From Stigmatella aurantiaca DW4/3-1 (GTDB lineage: Bacteria; Myxococcota; Myxococcia; Myxococcales; Myxococcaceae): a stretch of DNA of 64,000 nucleotides. Both the position numbers and the translations under genes were made by a program. A model generated the notes under the pieces. It was not told the origin of the DNA and ran no database searches. It saw only the letters and a list, made by a program, of their open reading frames with translations. The DNA is taken from positions 186,001 to 250,000 of the forward strand of contig NC_014623.1 in NCBI RefSeq assembly GCF_000165485.1, written 5' to 3'. Below, in pieces: positions 11,142 to 21,381 of the stretch. Each line of letters opens with the position of its first letter. The first letter of the stretch is position 1.

Positions 11142-12584
11142 TCAGGCGGTCTGGCGCTTCTCGAGGGCCTCCAGCCGTCGCAGGAAGGCGCGGCCCTTCT
11201 CCGCGTCCGTCATGTGAAGGAAGGCCGCGAGCCCCTTGAGCTGCTCCAGCGTCTCCCCGGTGGGGCCGGGCTTGCCCTGCTCCCGGTTGTGGATCGCCGC
11301 GCGCAGCCGCCGCACCACATCGCGGGGCACCCGGGCACCCGGAACGCCCTCGGGGGCCTCGTTCACCACGAGCCCCGTCACCCGCTGCCGGCTGCCCTTG
11401 CGCTGCACCCGCGTCTTGTCCGGGTGCAGCGTGAAACCCTCGGCCTCCAGCACACCCTTCACCCGCGCCAGGAGCAGCGCCACCGGCGCATCCGCCAGGG
11501 GGAGTTCCTTCTGCCGGGACTTCTTCGCCCGCCGCCAGGAGAACGTCAGGTCATCCGCATAGCGCGTGTACGTGAAGCCCAGCCGCTTCGACAGCGCCGA
11601 GAGCCGCTTGTCCAGCCGCAGGCACAGCGCGTTCGTCAGCGCCGGAGAGGTGGGGGCCCCCTGGGGCAGCGCGCGAGGGCCCTTGGCCACGTACAGCGTC
11701 TCTCCCCGGAACCGCACCACCTCGCGCGGGGCCTCGGTGGAGAGCAGCGCCAGGAGCGTCGCCAGGTTCTCCGGGAGTCCTCCCTTGCGCAGCAGTCCCT
11801 TGACCCGGGGCCACGTCACGGAAGGGAAGAAGTCCTTCATGTCCACCTTCACCACCACGTCCGCGCCCTGGTGGGCCAGCGCGTTGGTGAGGATGGAGCG
11901 CCCCGCCACGAAGCCGTGCGCGGCCCCGTGCACCGGCAGCCGCTCCACCACGTTCGCGAGCACCCAGCGCTGCACGGCCTTGAGCTCCCGCTTCGGCGCG
12001 GTGAGCGTCCGCTTGCCGCCGTCCCGCTTCGGAATCTCCCACGTCTGGTAGTGCGTGCCCGTGTCCACCTCGCGGTGGAAGGAGAACCAGCGCAGGCGCG
12101 ACACGGAGATGCCCAGCGCTTTGGCCAGCGCCTCGACCGAGTCCAACCCCTCCGGCAAGCCGTTGGCCTTGGCCCGCTCCTCGCGCCCGGCCACGTCGAA
12201 CTTGTCCGGCCCTCCGGCCTCGTCCCAGTGCACCCCCACGCCCAGGTGGTGGATGTGCGTGGCCTTCCAGGCCTCCCACGCCAGGCGCTTCTGCGCGCGC
12301 CGCTCGGTGGCCTCGGCCTTCTTCTTCTCCTTCCAGGCCGCCTTCTGCTTGTCGCTGAGCGACTCGAAGTCCACCTCTTCCGCCGCGACGCCCTTGGCCA
12401 CCAGCTGCTGCCGCACCCAGGCGTCCGTGCCGCCCGCCTCTTCGATGGCCTTCCACCGCAGGCGCAGCGCCTCGTGGTGGGCGCGGCGGGCCTCCTGCTT
12501 CGCGGCATCGGGACGGGTGGGGGCGGGCGCCTCGGCGGAGACGGGGGGCGCGGCGGGGACGTGTGACTCCAGCTTGGCGGTCAT
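11142..12584 (-). CDS. retron reverse transcriptase, Mx162/Sa163 type
   Basis: The 480-aa protein starts at ATG 12584 with AGGAG five bases upstream. Residues 1-170 are a charged N-terminal extension, as in the long RTs of Mx162-type myxobacterial retrons (about 485 aa from memory). The retron-specific NAxxH motif is NALAH at 234-238. The palm follows with VKVDMKDFFPS (first catalytic Asp), LPQGAPTSP, and the catalytic YADD at 342-345. The VTG triplet, which helps recognise the cognate RNA, is at 402-404. It reverse-transcribes its own msr-msd RNA, encoded directly upstream, into branched msDNA. It is the last gene of the minus-strand locus after the WD40/HEAT and SWIM genes, and all key residues are present. 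Confidence 0.95.
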   Translation of the reverse strand: MTAKLESHVPAAPPVSAEAPAPTRPDAAKQEARRAHHEALRLRWKAIEEAGGTDAWVRQQLVAKGVAAEEVDFESLSDKQKAAWKEKKKAEATERRAQKRLAWEAWKATHIHHLGVGVHWDEAGGPDKFDVAGREERAKANGLPEGLDSVEALAKALGISVSRLRWFSFHREVDTGTHYQTWEIPKRDGGKRTLTAPKRELKAVQRWVLANVVERLPVHGAAHGFVAGRSILTNALAHQGADVVVKVDMKDFFPSVTWPRVKGLLRKGGLPENLATLLALLSTEAPREVVRFRGETLYVAKGPRALPQGAPTSPALTNALCLRLDKRLSALSKRLGFTYTRYADDLTFSWRRAKKSRQKELPLADAPVALLLARVKGVLEAEGFTLHPDKTRVQRKGSRQRVTGLVVNEAPEGVPGARVPRDVVRRLRAAIHNREQGKPGPTGETLEQLKGLAAFLHMTDAEKGRAFLRRLEALEKRQTA

Positions 12585-12628
12585 GACGGCTCCTGGCGCC
12601 GGTGAGCAAGGTGGGGGGGGCGAGGCAG

Positions 12629-12950
12629 GGCAGGGCGACGGAGCGCGAGCGGTCGAGGGAGGCCCGAAGGCACCACCTTCTCACCTGGGGCACGGTAGCC
12701 TCACCGGCTCTCCCCTCCGGTGAGTACCTCTCCGGCCGGGGAAACGGCGGTTGCGTCGTTGGTTCAGCTCCCCGGCCGGAGAGGTACTCACCGGAGGGAA
12801 GAGAGCCAAGAACAGGCTACCTTGCGGAGAGTGTCCTGCAATTCAACCAGAGCGGCGCAACGCCGCTCTCGCGCTCGAGGCGCTGAGGCTGATGGCTTGG
12901 GACCTCTCTCGGTCGCTCGCACGAGTGTCTGTCGTTCCGTCGCACCTGCC
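12629..12950 (-). ncRNA. retron msr-msd RNA gene
   Basis: The 404-base gap between the SWIM gene and the RT gene has the expected layout on the minus strand. The a1/a2 ends are inverted repeats. The core pairs 12901-12920 with 12645-12664 (GCGAGCG identical, then CGAG/GAGG blocks), and an outer pairing joins 12936-12950 with 12629-12642. After a1 come short AAGC and CAGC sequences (12898-12882) where the branching G should lie. Then an msr stem-loop at 12849-12869 has nine perfect pairs around TTG. The long msd hairpin follows at 12706-12807. Distances would allow an msDNA of roughly 160 bases, in line with Mx162/Sa163. Exact 5' and 3' ends and the branch G are not determined. Only ~40 bases separate a1 from the SWIM stop, so the RNA may depend on an upstream promoter. 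Confidence 0.85.
12706..12807. repeat. msd long inverted repeat (msDNA hairpin)
   Basis: The left arm 12706-12741 and right arm 12770-12807 are complementary over 36 pairs, broken only by a two-base bulge, around a 28-base loop. It could be taken for a terminator, but it lacks a T-run and lies inside the msr-msd arrangement. It is therefore read as the template of the msDNA stem. Confidence 0.88.
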
Positions 12951-12988
12951 TTTCCGCCGCGCGCCCGCGGCCCCGTGGCTTGCGTGTT

Positions 12989-14827
12989 CTACATCATTGA
13001 AGCAGCCGCATCGATATATCCCTCCGCGGCCAAGGACTCCAGGCGCGTGAAGTAGGCGGTGCGCGCCTCGGCGTCCGTGTCGAACCAGAGCTTCTGCCGG
13101 CGGGACTCCCCCTGGCGGGGGCCCCACTCCACCGCCACCACTTTCCCATCCAATGAGACGCGGTACACCTGCTCCTGGCCGGAGGGCTCGCGCCGCACGT
13201 AGGAGCGCGTCTCCGCGCGGATGAGCTGGCGGCCCGCGGGGGTCTGACGCAGTGCTTCCTGCTCGGCGCGGTGCCGGACCTGGACGAGCCGCAGCGCCAT
13301 CATGTGCTCGCACGGGCCCTCGCGCAGCCCCGAGCGCCGGAAGTGGGGGCAGCCGCAGCTCGCCTCCCGCACGCGGCCCTCCAGGTCCAAGGTGAAGGAG
13401 GGGAAGAAGCTGCGGACGGCCTCCCGGTCCACCACCTCGCCGTGGATGCGGGTGCCCTCGCCCACCACCTCGTGCACCTTCGTCAGCTTCACCTCGCCCG
13501 CGCCGGGCCCGTCGTCGCCGAGCAGCCGGTGCGCCCGGGCCTCGCGCTCATTGCCGTAGCGCAGCGCCGCCTCGTCCACCGGGGCGGGCATCAGCTCGCG
13601 CGGCCGGTACGTCTCCTGGGCGATGTCATAGAGGATGCGTCCCCGGAGGCATTCGAGCTGCAACGCCGCGCGCACCGCGTCCTTCGGGGCCCCGGCCTCC
13701 GCCGCGAGCTTCTCGAAGGGCAGGGGGCCCTCGGTGCGCAGCCGCTGGCGCAGCCGCTCCGGGAGCCCCTCTGGCACCGCGCGCGGCATCAGCACATCGA
13801 AGGCGGCGGCGCTGGACCAGCCGCTCTCCGTCCACCCGGTGAGGGCCATCGTCAGCGAGGCCTCGCCCAGGTCCACCGCCCAGAACACCGGCAGGCCCGG
13901 GCCCAGGAGCCGCACCCGCACGCTCTTCGCGTGGGGCAGCAGCCGGGCCAGGGCGACGAGCCGCTGCCGGCCGAAGGTGCGCACCACCGCGGGCACCGTG
14001 CCCGTGTACACCGAGGCGTGGCACTCCAGCACCAGCTCCCACGGCTCGAGGATCAGCCGGGGCGGGGCGCCCGGGACGAGCTCGAAGCGCAGCGCGCGGG
14101 GGGCGGCCTTGGCCTTCCGGGTGCGCAGCGCGAACAGCAGGTTGTACAGATCGATGGGCGCCAGCGTGCACGTGCTCGCCGGGAGCGTGGCCGCGGACTG
14201 CACCTGGAGGAAGCCGCGCAGCCACGCGTGGGGCACCTCCACGTTCCGGGGTGCCCGGGCCTCCTGGGCGGGCAGTGCCACGTGTGCCTCCAGGGACAGC
14301 GGCACGTAGGTGCGCAGCCGGTCCACCTTGGCCATCAGGTCCTTGGGCACATCCAGGAAGGTGGAGCCGTGCGCGGCCTCGCGGCCCTCGAACAGGGCGC
14401 TGTCGAAGGCCAGGCGCGCATAGGCGCTCTCGTCGCGGGAGAACACCTCCAGGGACACCTGGTCCGGGTCCACCGTGAGGACCGGATCCAACACCGTGTC
14501 CTTCTGCTCCTCGGTTTGCAGCGAGGCGTCCAGGAAGGCCTTCTGGGCCTCCCAGATCTGCGCGGTGGCGCGCTTGCCCTGCTTCATCAGGTAGGCCAGG
14601 TACGCCGTGCGGTCCCGGCCCCGGTAGCGCAGGTCGCTGGCGAGGATGCCCAGGGTGGCGGCCAGCGCATCCCGGAAGAGGGCGGGTTCGCGGACGCGGC
14701 CGCGCACGCCCACGGTGCCGCGCGAGCCCTCCAGGGCCAGCAGCACGCGCGAGGCGTCCGGGCGGGTGTCCACGTCACTCGCGGTGGCGTAGCGCAGCTC
14801 GACGGGGTGGCGGGTGGCGGAGGTCAC
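12989..14827 (-). CDS. winged-helix SWIM zinc-finger protein (WHSWIM) of the retron locus
   Basis: The 612-aa protein starts at a GTG overlapping the stop of the upstream giant gene (GTGA), so the two are translationally coupled. Near the C-terminus is a SWIM zinc finger, C491-x-C493-x12-C506-x-H508, followed by MMALRL. SWIM fingers bind nucleic acid or protein. Just before it, residues ~355-413 look like a winged helix (LPERLRQRL, then KDAVRAALQLECLRGRILYD). The first ~350 residues are an alpha/beta region of unknown fold. SWIM proteins with large repeat proteins occur in bacterial conflict systems. Position between the WD40/HEAT gene and the msr-msd/RT suggests it is an effector or accessory subunit of the retron. 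Molecular activity is not known. Confidence 0.85.
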   Translation of the reverse strand: MTSATRHPVELRYATASDVDTRPDASRVLLALEGSRGTVGVRGRVREPALFRDALAATLGILASDLRYRGRDRTAYLAYLMKQGKRATAQIWEAQKAFLDASLQTEEQKDTVLDPVLTVDPDQVSLEVFSRDESAYARLAFDSALFEGREAAHGSTFLDVPKDLMAKVDRLRTYVPLSLEAHVALPAQEARAPRNVEVPHAWLRGFLQVQSAATLPASTCTLAPIDLYNLLFALRTRKAKAAPRALRFELVPGAPPRLILEPWELVLECHASVYTGTVPAVVRTFGRQRLVALARLLPHAKSVRVRLLGPGLPVFWAVDLGEASLTMALTGWTESGWSSAAAFDVLMPRAVPEGLPERLRQRLRTEGPLPFEKLAAEAGAPKDAVRAALQLECLRGRILYDIAQETYRPRELMPAPVDEAALRYGNEREARAHRLLGDDGPGAGEVKLTKVHEVVGEGTRIHGEVVDREAVRSFFPSFTLDLEGRVREASCGCPHFRRSGLREGPCEHMMALRLVQVRHRAEQEALRQTPAGRQLIRAETRSYVRREPSGQEQVYRVSLDGKVVAVEWGPRQGESRRQKLWFDTDAEARTAYFTRLESLAAEGYIDAAASMM

Positions 14828-17800
14828 GAGGCAGTTCCTTCCTTGCGGTTGCGAGCCAGGGCCCGGCGGGCGCGTTGGTGGGCGCGCCAGGCCGCCTTGC
14901 GAAGCGCCTCGGGCTGGCCCTTGTCGAAGGCGAGGCCCTGGAGCAGGTTCGCCGCGCCCTCATCGCCCATGCGCCCGAGGGCGGCCAGGGCATCTTGTTT
15001 CACCGCGGGAGGGTTGCCCCCGGTGGCCAGCGGGCGCAGCGGCTCCCACTGGTGCGAGGCCAGCAACGCGGGCAGCGCCGCCCGGCGTCCTTCCGAGGTC
15101 GCGAGCGGCTCCGGGGCGCGCAGCCCCGAGGCCAGGGGGCCGACGGCCACCGGATCAAACGGCTTCACCGCCAGGGCCCAGTCCGTGCGCTCGGGCGCCA
15201 GCCGGGCCAGGGCGGCGGCGGCGGCGGAACGCACCCGCGCGTCGGTATCCGTCAGCGCGGCGCGGAGGGCTTCGGCCGCCGAGGTGCGCTCCTTCGCGGT
15301 GGCCAGTGCGGGCGTGGCCCCTGCCTCCGCCGTGCCCAGGGTGCCCAGGGTGCGCGCGGCCTCCTGGCGCACCGTCGCGGGGGCTCCGGCCTCGCCTCCC
15401 TGAAGGATGGCGTGGGCGCCGGTGGCCAGCGGTGCCGTTCCCAGCCGCGCGCCGGCCCAGAGCAGCCGCTGCCACGCGCTGGCGAACGGAGGGCGCTTCG
15501 TTCCGGGGGCCGCGGCCCACTCGGTGGCGGTGCGCCGCTCGGCCGCGGCCAGCGCCCCGTGCAGGGTGGACGCTTGGGCGGAGGACAGGGGCGTCCGGGG
15601 CTCGCCCGTCCACGTGCCGATGACCTGGGCGGCCTCTTCGCGGGCGCGGGGCTCTTCGTGGGCGAGCAGCGCGGCCAGCTCCGGCACGGGCAGCCCGCCG
15701 CGCCGGGCGATGCCCCGGCGGATGCGCTGCCGCAGCGCCTCGTCCTTCAGCGTGGCCAGGTGGGGCACGAGCCGCGCGGGCTCGGCCTCGTCCGCCAGGT
15801 ACGTGGCGGCGGGCTGGGAGATGTCCGGGTGGCGGCTCATCACCGCGAGGAACTCCACCCGCACCCGGTCCTTCGGGAAGAGGGCATCGAGCGCCTTGCG
15901 GGCCTCTTGCCGCAGCGGGGCGTCATGCGTGTCGAGCACCCGGGCCAGGGGGGGCTCGGCCTCGGGGGCGCCCAGCTTGCCCAGCTCGGTCGCGGCGGTG
16001 AAGCGCACCGGGGACGCGGTGGTGTCGTCGGTGAGCAGTGCCTCCAGCTTCACCCGGACCCGCTCTCCGCCGATGAAGCGCAGGCCGCGCACACCGGCCT
16101 GTTGCTGCTCGAGGCTTCCCGCCTCCAGCGCGGCGGCTTCCACCTTCTCCTCGAGGCGCTTGCGGTCCTCGCCCTCGGGGAGCTTCGCGGCCAGCCGCCC
16201 CAGCCCTTCGACGGCGGCGACCACCATGCTCGGCTCGGCGGGGGCCTCCGGGGTTCCGCCCGCGGCCACGGCCTCCAGCTCGGCCAGGGCCCGCGCATCG
16301 CCCAGCGTGCCGAGCGCCAAGAGGGCCCGCTCGCGATCGCCGGGCTCGCCCGCGCGCGCATACAGCAGCAAGGGGCGCAGCGCACTGGGCAGTCCCTTGG
16401 AGGCCACGGCCTCGGCGGCGGGCAACATCAGCTCCCGGGCCCCGGCGCGCAGCACCTCTTCGATGGGCTCCACCTTCGCGCCCTCGTGCACGACGCGCCA
16501 GGAGTAGTGCGCCACCGCCTCGCGGCGCACCGTCACATCCCGGTCCGGGAAGAGGCTCAGGAGCAGGGCGTCCTGGCCCACGCCGGCTCCGAGCGCCAGC
16601 TCGCGGGGAACGGCCTGGCGCACGGCCACATCCTGAGAGCGGGCCGCGGCGCGCAGAAAGCGCACCGCCAGCGCCATGTCGCGCAGCTTCAAGTCGCGGA
16701 GGCCCTGGGGGGTGGGCTTCACGTTCCGGTCGGCCACCCCCATGGCGGCGGTGATGCAGGCCAGCCGCACGCTGGGGGCTTCGTCCTCCAACACCTGCTG
16801 GGCCAGCACCTCCACCGCTTCCGGGAGGAGGGTGCGCCCCAGGGCTTTCACGAGGGCGGTCCGCTCGTCCGGGCCCGGCGCGGCGCGGAGCCTGCTGGCG
16901 AGGGCGGCCACGGCGGCGGGGGAGGCGAGCCGCGTCAGGGCCTCCAGGGCGCGCGCGGCGGTGGGGGCGTTCTCCGAGCGCAGGAAGGCGCTCAGCACCT
17001 CCACGGTCCGGTCATCCTTGCGCCACGCGAGCAGCTCGGCGGCCCGCATCCGCAGGTCCTCGTGCTCGCTGGCCATGGCCCGTCCGAGGGCCTCGATGAC
17101 GCGGGCATCGTTGGCCCCCGCCAGCCGCTCGATGACCCCCACGCGCAGATCCGCGTGCTCGCTGGAGAGGGCGGCCAGCAGGGGCTCCAAGCTGCCCTTG
17201 GGGCTGAGCTTCTCGAGCAGCTCGAAGGCGTAGCGGCGCACCTCGGGCAGCGGCGAGTTCAGGGCGGCGGTGATGCGCGGCCGGGCGGCGTCTCCCCGCG
17301 TGGCCAGGGTGTCCAGCGCGGCCCGGGCCACGTCCTGGGAGAGCGAGGCCAGGGCGAGCGCCAGGGGCTCATCGGAGCCCGCGGGGTACAGCTCCTGGAG
17401 GCCCGCGAGCGCCGCCTTGCGCACGAGCTGGTGCGGATCCTCGAGGGCGCGCAGGAGCGCGGCCACGGCGGCGGGCTGCCCCGCGAAGCCCTCCTGGGTG
17501 AGCTTCACCACGCGGTCCACGGAGTCGCGCCGCACCCGGTGGCCTTCGTCGCCTTCGGTGGACACCTGGCGCAGCAGGCCCACGTAGGCACCGAAGGCCA
17601 GCCGCCGCAGGTGCTGCCGTTCGGCGGAGGCGAGGGCCTCGGCGGAAGGGGCCGCGGCCTCCTTGCCATTGGGCGTGCCGGTGGAGAAGAGGCGGCGCAG
17701 CCACCGCTTCGCGGGCTTGTCCGTGTCGGGCCCGGGGCGAGGCGTCGTCTCCGGCTTCCAGGGGGCATCCAGGGAGTGCAGGAGCGCCACCTTCTGGGCC

Positions 17801-20800
17801 TCGCGGAAGTACTCGACGGGCTTGTGGCGGAGGTTCAGCACCTGGGCGGCGGCATACCGCTGCTCGGAGACGTCGCTGGCGAGCGCCTCGGCCAGCTTCA
17901 CCATGCGGCGGGTGCGCTCCTCCTCGGCGGGCCACTCCTTCATGTCGCCGGCCTTCTCGGGCCGGGGCGGCATCAGCACCTCCACGAGGTGGGCGAGGAA
18001 GGCCTCCGGTTCGGCCCGAAGCTCCAGGGCGCGCGCGGCGGCGTAGCGCACCTCGGCCCGGGCGCTGGACAGGGCGCTGGTGAGCAAGTCCGGCGGCTCG
18101 CCCCGGCGCGAGGCGCGCAGGTCCCGGGCGAGGATGATGGCGAACACGCGCTCCTGCACATCCCGGTGGGAGTCCTCCAGGCCGTGGAGCATGCCCCCCT
18201 CGCCCGAGGCACCGAGCGCGGCGAAGGAGAGGAGGGCGCCCAGCCGGACGGGCAGGTGCTCATGGCGCAGCGTCCCGGTGAGCACGGGCAGGGCGCGCAC
18301 GTCTCCCAGGCGCGCGAGGCCATCGGCGGCCCAGGAGCGCACCGCCACCATCGCGTGGCCGAGGGCATCCAGCAGGGCCCCTTCATCTCCCCGGCGGCTG
18401 GCGGTGGCGAGGCCCCGGGCGCCCTGCTCCTTCACCTCGTTCTGCTCGTGCTGGAGCAGGGACGTATAAAAGGAGAGCAGCCGGCGCGAGCCCAGCGTGG
18501 CCAGGGCGCTGGCGGCGCGGGCGCGCAGCGGGAAGAGGATCTGCGGTGGGTAGCGGCGCTCCAACTCCTTGTCGGTGATGAGGGAGCGCATGGGCTCGAT
18601 GATGTCCTCGGCACCCCGCGTGGCGAGCAGCTCCGCGGCGCGGACCTGGAGGGGCAGGGTGGCGGAGAGGAGGCCCGCGAGCAGCGGCCCGTTCTCGTCC
18701 CGGACGAGCGTGTCCAGGGTTTCGAGGGCCTGGGTGTGGACGGCGGGGGCCTCATCCTGGATGAGCTTGAGCAGGGGCGAGCGCAGGGGGCCCACGGGGG
18801 CCTCCGCGGCGCCCTTCGCCGCCAGGGCCCGCAGCGAGGCGTGCGCCGTGCCGAGCGCGGCGAGGTAGGGCTCGGGCTGCTGCTTCCCCACGCGCTTCAC
18901 CCACGCCTCGTAGGCGGCGGTGGCCACGCCCGCGTCCCGGTCCTTCACGGTCTCCTTGAGCCGGTCGAGCGCCCAGGCCTCCTGGCTCCGCTCGGCCAGC
19001 ACCTCCACGGCGCGCAGGCGCAGATCCGGGAAGCGGCCGGCCAGGGCGCGATCCAGCGCCTTCTCGGGGGCCTTCTCGTTCCAGGCCCAGAGGGTGCGGA
19101 AGGCCTCGCCCCGGACCTTGCTGGACTCGTCCTCCAGCGCGTTGCCGAGCAGTGTCTCGGTGCCCCCGGCCCGGTGCGCGGGGGTGCCCAGCTCCACCAG
19201 CCGGGCGAGGCCGCGCACGCGCACGTCCTCGAAGGAGGAGCGCAGGGCGGCCTCCGTGCTGGACAGGGGCGTCTCCGCGTCCAGGGCCACCACGGCCTCG
19301 AAGGCGGCGGCCCGCACATCCGCCTGCTCGTCGTCGAGCATCCACACCAGCCGCTCACGGCCCCGCGGATCCTTCAGCACCTGGAGCGCGAAGGCGGCGA
19401 ACCGGCGGATGGCGGCATCCGGCTCGCGGGAGAGCTGCAACAGGGCGCCCAGGGCGCGCGTGTCGCCGAGGTAGGCGAGTGCCAGGGCCCCGAGCGCCGC
19501 GGTGTCCGGGGTGCGGCAGGCCATGGCGGCCAGCAGCGGCTCCAGGTCCGCCTCGGTGAGCTCCGCCCCGGCCTGGCCCATGCCGGGAAGCTGCGCCCGG
19601 GCGGCCTGGGCTTCGGCGTTGGAGACGGGCTTGTCCGAAAGAGGCTGGGCGGAGGGCGTCCGGGACAGAGGGGCCAACCGGCGGCCCACGTCGAGCCCCG
19701 AGCGGACGAAGTCCGGATCCAGCTTCTCCAGGGCGTGGGCGAGCGCGCGGCGCTCCATCACACGCAGCAGGAAGGCGATGTGGCGCACGTCGGCGTCCGC
19801 ATCGTCCAGGGCGCGGGCCACCAGGGGCTGGAGCGTTGCGGAGCCGAGCTGCCCGGCCCAGGCCGCGCGCAGCAGCACCTCGGTCTTGAGGGGGGCGGGG
19901 CCCCGCTCGAAGGCGGTCTTCAGGGGCTCGTTGCTGCCCGCGGGGGAGGCCTGGGTGAGGGCGTCCAGCGCGGCGAGCCCCACGGACGGATCCGGATCCG
20001 AGAGCTTCCCGGCGATGAGGCCGGGCACCAGGGGCGAGGAGCCCGCGAGCGCGGCGAGCCGCCGCAGGCCGGCGGCCCGGATGTCCGCGTGACGCGAGTC
20101 GAGCGCGGCGCGCGGGGCGGCCAGGGGGGACTCCTCCAGGGTGGCGAGGGCCTCCAGCGCGGCGGCACGGACGGCGGGAAAGTCGTCCTCGAGCCGCTCG
20201 CGCAGCTTGGGGCGGGCGCCGGTCCGGCCCTTCGCGGCCAGCTCGGAGGCGGCCAGCGCGCGCACCGCCGCGTCGCGGTCCGAGGAGAGCACCTGAAGGA
20301 CGAAGCTCAGGGCCTCGGGCTCCTCCAGCGCGGCGGCCTCGCGGACGGCGGCCTCGCGGCGGGGACGGCCTTCATCCAGGGCATCGTTCAGGGCATCGAT
20401 GCCGTGGGCGTAGCCGAGCCGCTCGTCCGTGGGGGTGCCGTCGGGGGCCACGGTGATGCGGAGCATCTTGCGCAGGTCTCCGCCGGTGAAGACATGGCCC
20501 AGGACCGTCTTGGCCTGACGGGGGTTGGCGGGGGGCGCGAAGACGAGCGCGTGCAGCGGCTTGCTGCCGCCATCGAAGCTGCGGGGTTTGCGGCGCTCGT
20601 CGAGGCGCCACACCTTCACCTGACCATCGGCCCCGGCGGTCCAGAAGCGGTCCTTGGCCTCCTGGCCGGGCTCGGCCGCGGGGGTGGGCGGGAAGAGCAG
20701 GGCGAGCACCGGACCGGCATGGCCGGAGTCCTTGTCCCCGCGCGTCTCGAATTCCACGGCGCCGGCGAGGTACCAGATGCGGATGCGGCCATCGTCTCCC

Positions 20801-21381
20801 GCGGAGACGAGCCGGCCATCGCGAGGGGTGAAGGCGAGGGCGCGCACGGGGCCGTCATGGCCGGGCATGTCGCGCTGGGCGCGGGAGGCGAGGGTGAAGG
20901 AGCGGACGACGGCGTCATCGCCCGCGCAGGCGACGGTGGCGTTGTTCGGAGCGACAGCGACGGCGCGGAGCGGCTGGGCGGAGGCCTGCCATTCCTGGAG
21001 CTTCGAGCCAGACGCCAGGGCCCAGGCCCGCAGGGCGCCATCCATTCCCACGGAGTAGAGGCGCTGGCCGTTGAGGCCGAGGGCCAGGGCGGTGCAGCCG
21101 CCGGGGTGCGCACCGGCCAGCTCGAGCTCCTGCGAGCCATCGCCCAGGGCGCCCACGCGCACGGTGCCGTCCGCGCCGGCAGCCACCCAGCGCTCGCCGG
21201 CGAGGGCCAGGGCGAGCACGGCGGAGGGAAGCTCCACGCTCCACAGCACCTTGTTGGCGGCGAAGTCATAGGCGGTGAGCCTGCTGGCGGAGGTGGCTCG
21301 CGCGCCGCCGACGAGGAGCACCCGGCTGTTGGCCGCGAGCGCCCGTACCTTCTCGATATTGCCGATGGCGAGGTTGGCCAT
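14824..21381 (-). CDS. giant WD40/HEAT-repeat scaffold protein of the retron locus
   Basis: The 2185-aa product starts at ATG 21381, with GGAGG twelve bases upstream. Residues ~1-320 form WD40-like blades, for example VWRLDERRKP and IRIWYLAG ends and repeated GDDG turns. From ~345 to the end there are dozens of HEAT/armadillo-type helical pairs with the pattern D-x-x-V-R-x-x-A-x-x-A-L. There is no signal peptide or membrane helix, so it is cytoplasmic. Such proteins are scaffolds or sensors; no catalytic motif was seen. It is the first gene of the retron unit and is coupled by a 4-base overlap to the WHSWIM gene. The pairing suggests the scaffold holds the RT-msDNA complex and the WHSWIM protein, but that is inference. 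Confidence 0.85.
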   Translation of the reverse strand: MANLAIGNIEKVRALAANSRVLLVGGARATSASRLTAYDFAANKVLWSVELPSAVLALALAGERWVAAGADGTVRVGALGDGSQELELAGAHPGGCTALALGLNGQRLYSVGMDGALRAWALASGSKLQEWQASAQPLRAVAVAPNNATVACAGDDAVVRSFTLASRAQRDMPGHDGPVRALAFTPRDGRLVSAGDDGRIRIWYLAGAVEFETRGDKDSGHAGPVLALLFPPTPAAEPGQEAKDRFWTAGADGQVKVWRLDERRKPRSFDGGSKPLHALVFAPPANPRQAKTVLGHVFTGGDLRKMLRITVAPDGTPTDERLGYAHGIDALNDALDEGRPRREAAVREAAALEEPEALSFVLQVLSSDRDAAVRALAASELAAKGRTGARPKLRERLEDDFPAVRAAALEALATLEESPLAAPRAALDSRHADIRAAGLRRLAALAGSSPLVPGLIAGKLSDPDPSVGLAALDALTQASPAGSNEPLKTAFERGPAPLKTEVLLRAAWAGQLGSATLQPLVARALDDADADVRHIAFLLRVMERRALAHALEKLDPDFVRSGLDVGRRLAPLSRTPSAQPLSDKPVSNAEAQAARAQLPGMGQAGAELTEADLEPLLAAMACRTPDTAALGALALAYLGDTRALGALLQLSREPDAAIRRFAAFALQVLKDPRGRERLVWMLDDEQADVRAAAFEAVVALDAETPLSSTEAALRSSFEDVRVRGLARLVELGTPAHRAGGTETLLGNALEDESSKVRGEAFRTLWAWNEKAPEKALDRALAGRFPDLRLRAVEVLAERSQEAWALDRLKETVKDRDAGVATAAYEAWVKRVGKQQPEPYLAALGTAHASLRALAAKGAAEAPVGPLRSPLLKLIQDEAPAVHTQALETLDTLVRDENGPLLAGLLSATLPLQVRAAELLATRGAEDIIEPMRSLITDKELERRYPPQILFPLRARAASALATLGSRRLLSFYTSLLQHEQNEVKEQGARGLATASRRGDEGALLDALGHAMVAVRSWAADGLARLGDVRALPVLTGTLRHEHLPVRLGALLSFAALGASGEGGMLHGLEDSHRDVQERVFAIILARDLRASRRGEPPDLLTSALSSARAEVRYAAARALELRAEPEAFLAHLVEVLMPPRPEKAGDMKEWPAEEERTRRMVKLAEALASDVSEQRYAAAQVLNLRHKPVEYFREAQKVALLHSLDAPWKPETTPRPGPDTDKPAKRWLRRLFSTGTPNGKEAAAPSAEALASAERQHLRRLAFGAYVGLLRQVSTEGDEGHRVRRDSVDRVVKLTQEGFAGQPAAVAALLRALEDPHQLVRKAALAGLQELYPAGSDEPLALALASLSQDVARAALDTLATRGDAARPRITAALNSPLPEVRRYAFELLEKLSPKGSLEPLLAALSSEHADLRVGVIERLAGANDARVIEALGRAMASEHEDLRMRAAELLAWRKDDRTVEVLSAFLRSENAPTAARALEALTRLASPAAVAALASRLRAAPGPDERTALVKALGRTLLPEAVEVLAQQVLEDEAPSVRLACITAAMGVADRNVKPTPQGLRDLKLRDMALAVRFLRAAARSQDVAVRQAVPRELALGAGVGQDALLLSLFPDRDVTVRREAVAHYSWRVVHEGAKVEPIEEVLRAGARELMLPAAEAVASKGLPSALRPLLLYARAGEPGDRERALLALGTLGDARALAELEAVAAGGTPEAPAEPSMVVAAVEGLGRLAAKLPEGEDRKRLEEKVEAAALEAGSLEQQQAGVRGLRFIGGERVRVKLEALLTDDTTASPVRFTAATELGKLGAPEAEPPLARVLDTHDAPLRQEARKALDALFPKDRVRVEFLAVMSRHPDISQPAATYLADEAEPARLVPHLATLKDEALRQRIRRGIARRGGLPVPELAALLAHEEPRAREEAAQVIGTWTGEPRTPLSSAQASTLHGALAAAERRTATEWAAAPGTKRPPFASAWQRLLWAGARLGTAPLATGAHAILQGGEAGAPATVRQEAARTLGTLGTAEAGATPALATAKERTSAAEALRAALTDTDARVRSAAAAALARLAPERTDWALAVKPFDPVAVGPLASGLRAPEPLATSEGRRAALPALLASHQWEPLRPLATGGNPPAVKQDALAALGRMGDEGAANLLQGLAFDKGQPEALRKAAWRAHQRARRALARNRKEGTAS

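What the first reader, a model, noticed from the sequence alone, without database searches (positions are those of the whole stretch)
12629..12950. msr-msd with a 36-pair msd stem and ungapped a1/a2 core
The msd arms (12706-12741 and 12770-12807) pair almost perfectly, and the a1/a2 core aligns without gaps and extends after a bulge. The geometry fits Mx162/Sa163-type msDNA. The short distance from the SWIM stop suggests the RNA is made from the operon transcript or a promoter inside the SWIM gene.
Basis: seen in the sequence. Interest (0 to 1): 0.7.

Follow-up and report, generated by a model that had tools for sequence, protein, structure and literature searches.

The report
Classic Sa163 retron, re-found

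Summary
On the minus strand between the SWIM gene (stop 12989) and the reverse transcriptase (RT) gene (ATG 12584) lies a complete msr-msd: paired ends, CAGC branch site (G 12889), msr hairpin, long nearly perfect msd stem. A covariance model built without the window's genome and its nearest relatives finds it at 193 bits, E 1.6e-40. The three genes match PADLOC's RT_XIII, SWIM_XIII and HEAT-ARM_XIII. Genome size and contig number point to Stigmatella aurantiaca DW4/3-1, so this is very probably retron Sa163 (Retron-Sau1) itself: already known.

Comparison added: (1) a TGrTGTAgAA element overlapping the SWIM stop stays with the RNA gene where SWIM is detached (Archangium) or the RNA duplicated: a likely promoter; (2) 80 distinct msd stems are 98% Watson-Crick and their rare defects look like DNA wobble, not RNA wobble; (3) in four metagenome-assembled genomes the operon lacks the RNA gene, but 4-6 msr-msd copies lie elsewhere in the genome; (4) tandem copies occur. 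For (3) the only precedent in the text I could read is Ne160.

The parts
14824..21381 (-). HEAT-ARM/WD40 repeat protein gene, 2185 aa, first gene of the operon
   Evidence: PADLOC HEAT-ARM_XIII, 1528 bits; Pfam HEAT and WD40; overlaps the SWIM gene by 4 nt
12989..14827 (-). SWIM zinc-finger protein gene, 612 aa
   Evidence: PADLOC SWIM_XIII, 530 bits; Pfam SWIM 19.1 bits, just under its cutoff of 19.6
12986..12996 (-). candidate promoter element TGATGTAGAAC, overlapping the SWIM stop codon
   Evidence: Similar element about 162-190 nt upstream of the junction motif in most Myxococcaceae loci; kept where SWIM is detached. Inferred, not mapped
12936..12950 (-). outer extension of the terminal stem, 5' strand
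   Evidence: pairs with 12629-12642 after a bulge
12901..12922 (-). a1/a2 core, 5' strand
   Evidence: faces 12643-12664 without gaps, 19 of 22 positions paired
12888..12891 (-). branch site CAGC; predicted branch G at 12889
   Evidence: CATCAGCC conserved in the alignment; CAGC reported for Sa163
12849..12870 (-). msr hairpin GAGAGCGGCG-TTG-CGCCGCTCT
   Evidence: covarying pairs, often G-U in relatives
12806..12821 (-). msr/msd junction motif GGTAGCCTGTTCTTGG
   Evidence: one exact copy in the own genome; 47 of the 64 RT loci have it upstream of the RT with up to 3 mismatches
12769..12803 (-). msd stem arm 1
12743..12768 (-). msd loop with a small apical hairpin, strongly conserved
12708..12742 (-). 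msd stem arm 2
12693..12707 (-). stem-base motif CCGGTGAGGCTACCG, pairs with the junction motif
   Evidence: nearly invariant pairs; 113-114 nt after the junction in the 77 loci (which admitted only spacings of 105-125)
12677..12839 (+). approximate extent of the 163-nt msDNA strand (arithmetic only, ends not mapped)
   Evidence: 163 nt from the retron's name and the 8-base msr/msd overlap of Mx162, with Sa163's RNA length and branch position recalled; DNA fold
12643..12664 (-). a1/a2 core, 3' strand
12629..12642 (-). outer extension of the terminal stem, 3' strand
11142..12584 (-). retron reverse transcriptase, 480 aa, long N-terminal extension; shows YADD, NALAH and VTG
   Evidence: PADLOC RT_XIII, 512 bits; Pfam RVT_1 at 184-405; sequence

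Best explanation
This is a complete type XIII retron, very probably Sa163 (Retron-Sau1) of Stigmatella aurantiaca DW4/3-1. Gene order on the minus strand is HEAT-repeat protein, SWIM protein, msr-msd RNA, RT. A promoter that probably overlaps the SWIM stop codon makes an RNA whose ends pair (a1/a2) and present the branch G of CAGC. The RT primes on that G and copies the msd into a DNA of about 163 nt that folds into a long hairpin and stays joined to the msr RNA. Shown here: genes, RNA anatomy, covariation, DNA-type conservation of the stem. Known for Sa163 from the literature: msDNA production. Inferred: the promoter, the exact ends, and a phage-defence role in which the RT-msDNA complex restrains the SWIM/HEAT proteins, as in other retrons.
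For: RT_XIII, SWIM_XIII and HEAT-ARM_XIII at 512, 530 and 1528 bits. A covariance model without the window's genome or its nearest relatives (closest RT used 81% identical) gives 193 bits; in the whole genome one hit at E 0.001, with 150 of 9242 first-look candidates scored, and one exact junction motif. 41 of 59 consensus pairs have double-sided changes. CAGC and an N-terminally extended RT, as described for Sa163. Genome of 10,260,756 bases in one contig against 10.3 Mb, one contig for DW4/3-1. msd stems: 2928 of 2979 aligned pairs Watson-Crick; defects in RNA sense 27 A-C, 5 G-U, 19 other, while the msr hairpin has 33 G-U and 3 A-C. RNA-sense A-C is G-T in the msDNA, so the stem is conserved as DNA.
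Against: No tool named the species; the exact DW4/3-1 genome length and Sa163's 480-aa RT are recalled. Window GC is 68.8%, the genome's 67.5%. Three mismatches in the a1/a2 core. Pfam's SWIM match is below its curated cutoff. The term XIII does not occur in the three retron papers searched for it, so I have no text on the function of type XIII.
Confidence: 0.95

Rival explanations
1. A type XIII retron of a different Stigmatella-like strain, homologous to Sa163 but not Sa163 itself.
For: A relative (G005) has an RT 97% identical and a very similar msr-msd (L066), so near-identical retrons exist in the genus.
Against: Size and single-contig status fit DW4/3-1; G005 is larger (11.0 Mb, 2 contigs).
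Confidence: 0.04
2. A long hairpin of another kind (terminator, attenuator or mobile-element end) that only resembles an msd.
For: The stem alone is a strong hairpin.
Against: The whole msr-msd plan covaries, with branch site, junction and base motifs beside RT_XIII; no terminator-like site in 12560-13400; DNA-type defects in the stem.
Confidence: 0.01
3. The RNA has no promoter of its own and is cut out of the HEAT-SWIM-RT operon transcript (a rival on expression, not on identity).
For: HEAT and SWIM overlap and all genes are on one strand; no sigma-70-like site was found, though the scan has little power.
Against: In six Archangium-group genomes SWIM lies 1-5 kb (four), about 60 kb (one) or on another contig (one) from the RNA gene, and the TGGTGTAGAAA element stays with the RNA. 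Trans copies in four MAGs lie on contigs without an RT match; in 14 of 20 the best promoter-like site has its first hexamer 60-77 nt before CAGC, but it scores only 7-8 of 12 and no shuffle control was run.
Confidence: 0.3

Closest known systems
Retron Sa163 (Retron-Sau1), Stigmatella aurantiaca
   Different: No difference found; not compared letter by letter.
Retron Mx162 (Retron-Mxa1), Myxococcus xanthus
   Same: The M. xanthus AM003 locus L019 has the same gene order, junction and base motifs and CAGC.
   Different: RT 73% identical; variable part of the stem largely different in sequence though equally paired. L019 was not compared with the published Mx162.
Type XIII retrons (RT, SWIM, HEAT-ARM) in PADLOC
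   Same: All three models match.
   Different: None seen. The name comes from PADLOC; its literature source (Mestre et al. 2020) is recalled and not held.
Retron Ne160 (Retron-Nex1), Nannocystis exedens
   Same: Repeated msr-msd copies without an RT within a kilobase, like the trans copies found here in MAGs.
   Different: The window has one copy with its RT beside it; Ne160 sequence not compared.

Membership tests
Retron | Retron-type RT with YADD and the region X/Y motifs (NAxxH, VTG; motif names recalled) | tested here: met
   RYADD, NALAH, RVTG; PADLOC retron RT models
Retron | msr-msd RNA with paired ends and a conserved AGC branch site | tested here: met
Retron | msDNA with a 2'-5' branch | not testable with these tools
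   needs purified msDNA
Type XIII retron | RT_XIII with SWIM_XIII and HEAT-ARM_XIII | tested here: met
   512, 530 and 1528 bits. In the 64 loci a SWIM match is found in 55 and a HEAT match in 46, several losses being at contig ends
Retron Sa163 | Host Stigmatella aurantiaca | tested here: inconclusive
   size and contig number fit DW4/3-1; no tool named the species, exact length recalled
Retron Sa163 | CAGC branch site and N-terminally extended RT | tested here: met
Retron Sa163 | 163-nt msDNA of the published sequence | not tested
   sequence not held; geometry allows it
Anti-phage defence system | Protection against phage | not testable with these tools
   no assay possible; no text on type XIII found

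The most novel reading that the evidence does not exclude
In one lineage of type XIII retrons a single RT operon without its own RNA gene serves a family of 4-6 dispersed msr-msd genes, each with private a1/a2 ends and its own promoter. Across the family the msd stems behave as DNA cassettes: replaced as units, homogenised arm to arm by template switching, and exchanged between loci, perhaps with msDNA itself as donor. Retron msDNA would then be a natural self-editing donor, and these bacteria would carry a repertoire of msDNAs.
Probability: 0.4. Interest if true: 0.65.

Novelty: already known. Interest (0 to 1): 0.3.

Why it matters
The window itself adds a clean confirmation of a founding retron and a concrete promoter candidate. 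The comparison matters more. It suggests that the msd stem of this family is conserved as DNA rather than RNA, which would be sequence-only evidence for msDNA in many untested genomes. It also shows that RNA gene and RT can be uncoupled in type XIII, so searches that look only next to the RT will miss msDNA genes. Both make the old question of what myxobacterial msDNA does easier to test.

Tried and rejected
Rfam at gathering thresholds: no match in the window; the permissive threshold was not tried.

A promoter scan of 12560-13400 found nothing, with nothing expected by chance either. A sigma-70 score on 15 cis loci often pointed at the SWIM stop, which alone could be conserved coding sequence; I took it seriously only after seeing it kept where SWIM is detached or the RNA duplicated.

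I first read Archangium as having lost SWIM. A genome search showed SWIM present but displaced, so I dropped that. The second motif in G033 and one of three in G167 sit at contig ends and look like breaks of one gene at the palindrome. L036 lacks the msd stem (spacing 22 nt), probably an assembly collapse, and was left out of alignment A1.

Hairpin searches in the RNA-less loci gave no candidate that I could match between them; motif and model searches then found the RNA genes elsewhere. No structure prediction was run: the protein families are clear.

Rows dropped: A1 used 50 of 63 extracted copies (near-duplicates and L036 removed); L075 and L077 were skipped before that at contig ends. Model R1 used 28 copies, leaving out the own copy and L066-L070; L001, whose genome the tool places in the window's GTDB genus (G006), was kept. 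One search counts come from loci then held, spacing 75-135, cis, tandem and trans together. One search compared 51 distinct loci, only pairs with equal spacing and at least 80 four-fold sites. Neither is corrected for relatedness. The msr stem was chosen as the window with most Watson-Crick pairs, which works against finding G-U there.

Full report
Identity of the locus. On the minus strand the order is HEAT-repeat gene (21381-14824), SWIM gene (14827-12989), msr-msd RNA, RT gene (12584-11142). PADLOC's best models are HEAT-ARM_XIII, SWIM_XIII and RT_XIII at 1528, 530 and 512 bits. The RT has a long N-terminal part before the Pfam RT domain at residue 184, as a review describes for Sa163 and Mx162 (PMC6868368, passages). 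The window is G000:C1:186001-250000 of a 10,260,756-base single contig. The complete Stigmatella aurantiaca DW4/3-1 genome is listed as 10.3 Mb, 1 contig, 67.5% GC (PMC8538405, passages); I recall its exact length as the same figure. Sa163 is the retron of S. aurantiaca (a 1987 Cell paper on its msDNA is in the reference list of PMC12405507, passages). So this is very probably Sa163. A 2024 paper cites a study in which Sa163 gave the most msDNA among retrons tried for editing (PMC11624263, one passage).

The RNA. The arms 12708-12742 and 12769-12803 are 97% complementary over 35 nt. The transcript strand folds with z = -10.0, the presumed msDNA strand with z = -11.4. The branch site CAGC of Sa163 and Mx162 is at 12891-12888. 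Among 50 aligned copies 41 of 59 consensus pairs include double-sided changes. A covariance model from 28 copies, without the window's copy or L066-L070, finds the window copy at 193 bits, and it is the only hit in the genome at E 0.001, with 150 of 9242 first-look candidates scored.

Conservation in relatives. Of the 64 loci, 47 have the junction motif upstream of the RT with up to 3 mismatches. In Myxococcota 66 of 195 genomes hold an exact copy of GGTAGSCTGTTCTTGG. Among the 77 loci, which admitted spacings of 105-125, junction and base motifs are 113 (55) or 114 (22) nt apart, while the stem between them varies widely. Outside that set most trans copies have 116, two have 105 and 83, and L036 has 22.

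The stem looks conserved as DNA. Aligning the two arms with all mismatches penalised alike, 80 distinct copies gave 2928 Watson-Crick pairs, 27 A-C, 5 G-U and 19 other in RNA sense. The first 27 pairs from the base had 3 defects in 2152; the A-C defects lie at pairs 28-34 and all 5 G-U at pair 38, next to the loop. The msr hairpin, which is not copied into DNA, gave 260 Watson-Crick, 33 G-U, 3 A-C, 10 other over 34 distinct hairpins. RNA-sense G-U is A-C in the msDNA and RNA-sense A-C is G-T there, so the pattern is that expected of a DNA hairpin. Fisher p is about 1e-10 but ignores relatedness. The review says msd stems generally contain mismatched or wobble pairs; this family hardly does.

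How the stem changes. Pairs of loci at a mean four-fold-site distance of 0.083 (20 pairs) differ in 9.8% and 8.5% of positions of the variable parts of the two arms; at 0.127 (48 pairs) in 14.7% and 13.8%; the loop differs in 1.9% and 3.1%. The four closest pairs (distance below 0.05) show no change, and the values jump between pairs, from 0 to about a third at similar distance. The arms were compared position by position, so double changes follow from this together with the pairing. Paired changes about as frequent as neutral single ones, with few intermediates, fit template switching, which is described for RNA hairpins (PMC8794818, abstract and start of introduction). Diversifying selection is a rival, and the pairs are not independent.

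Expression. TGATGTAGAAC overlaps the SWIM stop at 12996-12986. With up to 2 mismatches to TGGTGTAGAAA 20 of 75 upstream regions have such an element, shuffled 0.7%; with up to 3 mismatches 45 of 75, shuffled 8.5%, a few of these at other positions. It was not found in L027, L035-L041, L043-L046, L048, L049, L054, L055, L058, L059, L061 or the tandem L125. In Archangium-group genomes SWIM is 1-5 kb away (G013, G033, G110, G113), about 60 kb (G111) or on another contig (G112). An NRPS gene lies before the RNA in L060. The element stays in front of the RNA in all seven such loci looked at (L016, L060, L168-L172). In tandem RNA pairs the second copy has it too: exactly in L070, with one mismatch and closer in L001. 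This is the best evidence for a promoter there.

Other placements. In Zooshikella (G064, G065) the one RNA hit lies about 12 kb upstream of the RT on the same strand, in G064 upstream of the HEAT-like match. In G066 it lies about 3 kb upstream of HEAT, on a contig without the RT. In G063 it is on a contig without an RT match. In G059-G062 the SWIM-RT gap is 18-24 nt and holds no RNA. Those genomes hold 6, 4, 5 and 6 copies (one in G059 and one in G060 are cut by contig ends, the fourth of G060 is a weaker model hit not examined further). At E 1e-10 each has one close RT_XIII (60-64% identity) and two distant RTs, all on contigs without a copy; the close RT of G062 has one internal stop in the assembly. 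Of these copies 18 were tested for end pairing: the own partner was the best of 18 in 13 cases and among the best three in all. Five positions look orthologous between G059 and G062, one of them on thin evidence (L144/L153). In two of the five the stems agree (0.94); in three they do not (0.50-0.53; shuffled 99% point 0.47), and L148, L153, L154 and L156 match a copy at another position better (0.81-0.88), L144 and L145 only weakly (0.69, 0.59). These are MAGs, so bins may be impure, but shared positions between genomes argue against contamination.

Literature on trans copies. Ne160 is said to have repeated msr-msd without a nearby RT (PMC6868368 section 9, read). The search returned no paper and the 15 of 58 papers listed showed nothing closer by title and abstract start; the library lacks most subscription journals, so absence there is weak.

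Verdict. The finding is correct and ordinary in itself: a known retron. The observations on relatives are worth following.

Noticed in passing
L144-L160, L167 (G059-G062): 4-6 dispersed msr-msd copies per genome; 18 tested copies pair best or nearly best with their own ends, while the HEAT-SWIM-RT operon (L023, L024, L025, L029) has no RNA gene between SWIM and RT.
   Followed up: partly
L144-L160 stems: In 3 of 5 apparently orthologous positions the msd stems differ, and several resemble the stem of another position, as if stems were exchanged as cassettes.
   Followed up: partly
80 msd copies from the loci held: Stem defects are of the DNA-wobble kind (27 A-C to 5 G-U in RNA sense), opposite to the msr hairpin; no relatedness correction.
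   Followed up: partly
L001, L070, L027, L162, L125: Tandem double msr-msd upstream of the RT; the two stems differ in the first four, L125 (two motifs 359 nt apart) was not read.
   Followed up: partly
L063:8915-9372: Planctomycetales locus with two similar hairpins (30 of 33 and 29 of 33 pairs) upstream of an RT_XIII; not found by model R1.
   Followed up: no
L166, L165: RNA gene upstream of the HEAT or HEAT-like gene instead of before the RT (Zooshikella and G066).
   Followed up: partly
L016, L060, L168-L173: Archangium: SWIM detached from the RNA-RT unit, in L060 with an NRPS gene in front; a short SWIM-end remnant is kept.
   Followed up: partly
L035, L038, L040, L044, L055, L058, L059: In these loci the HEAT match lies downstream of the RT, a different gene order.
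   Followed up: no
L080, L082, L088-L093: Second retron family in related genomes (RT about 47%, SWIM 38-41% identical); of these, four were searched with model R1 and gave weak hits (33-42 bits).
   Followed up: no
G000:C1:262261-262515: Weak second RT match in the own genome (E 3.8e-4), outside the window.
   Followed up: no
L036, L145, L160, L161, L163: Contigs end or lose sequence at the msd palindrome, so short-read assemblies may under-count these genes.
   Followed up: no
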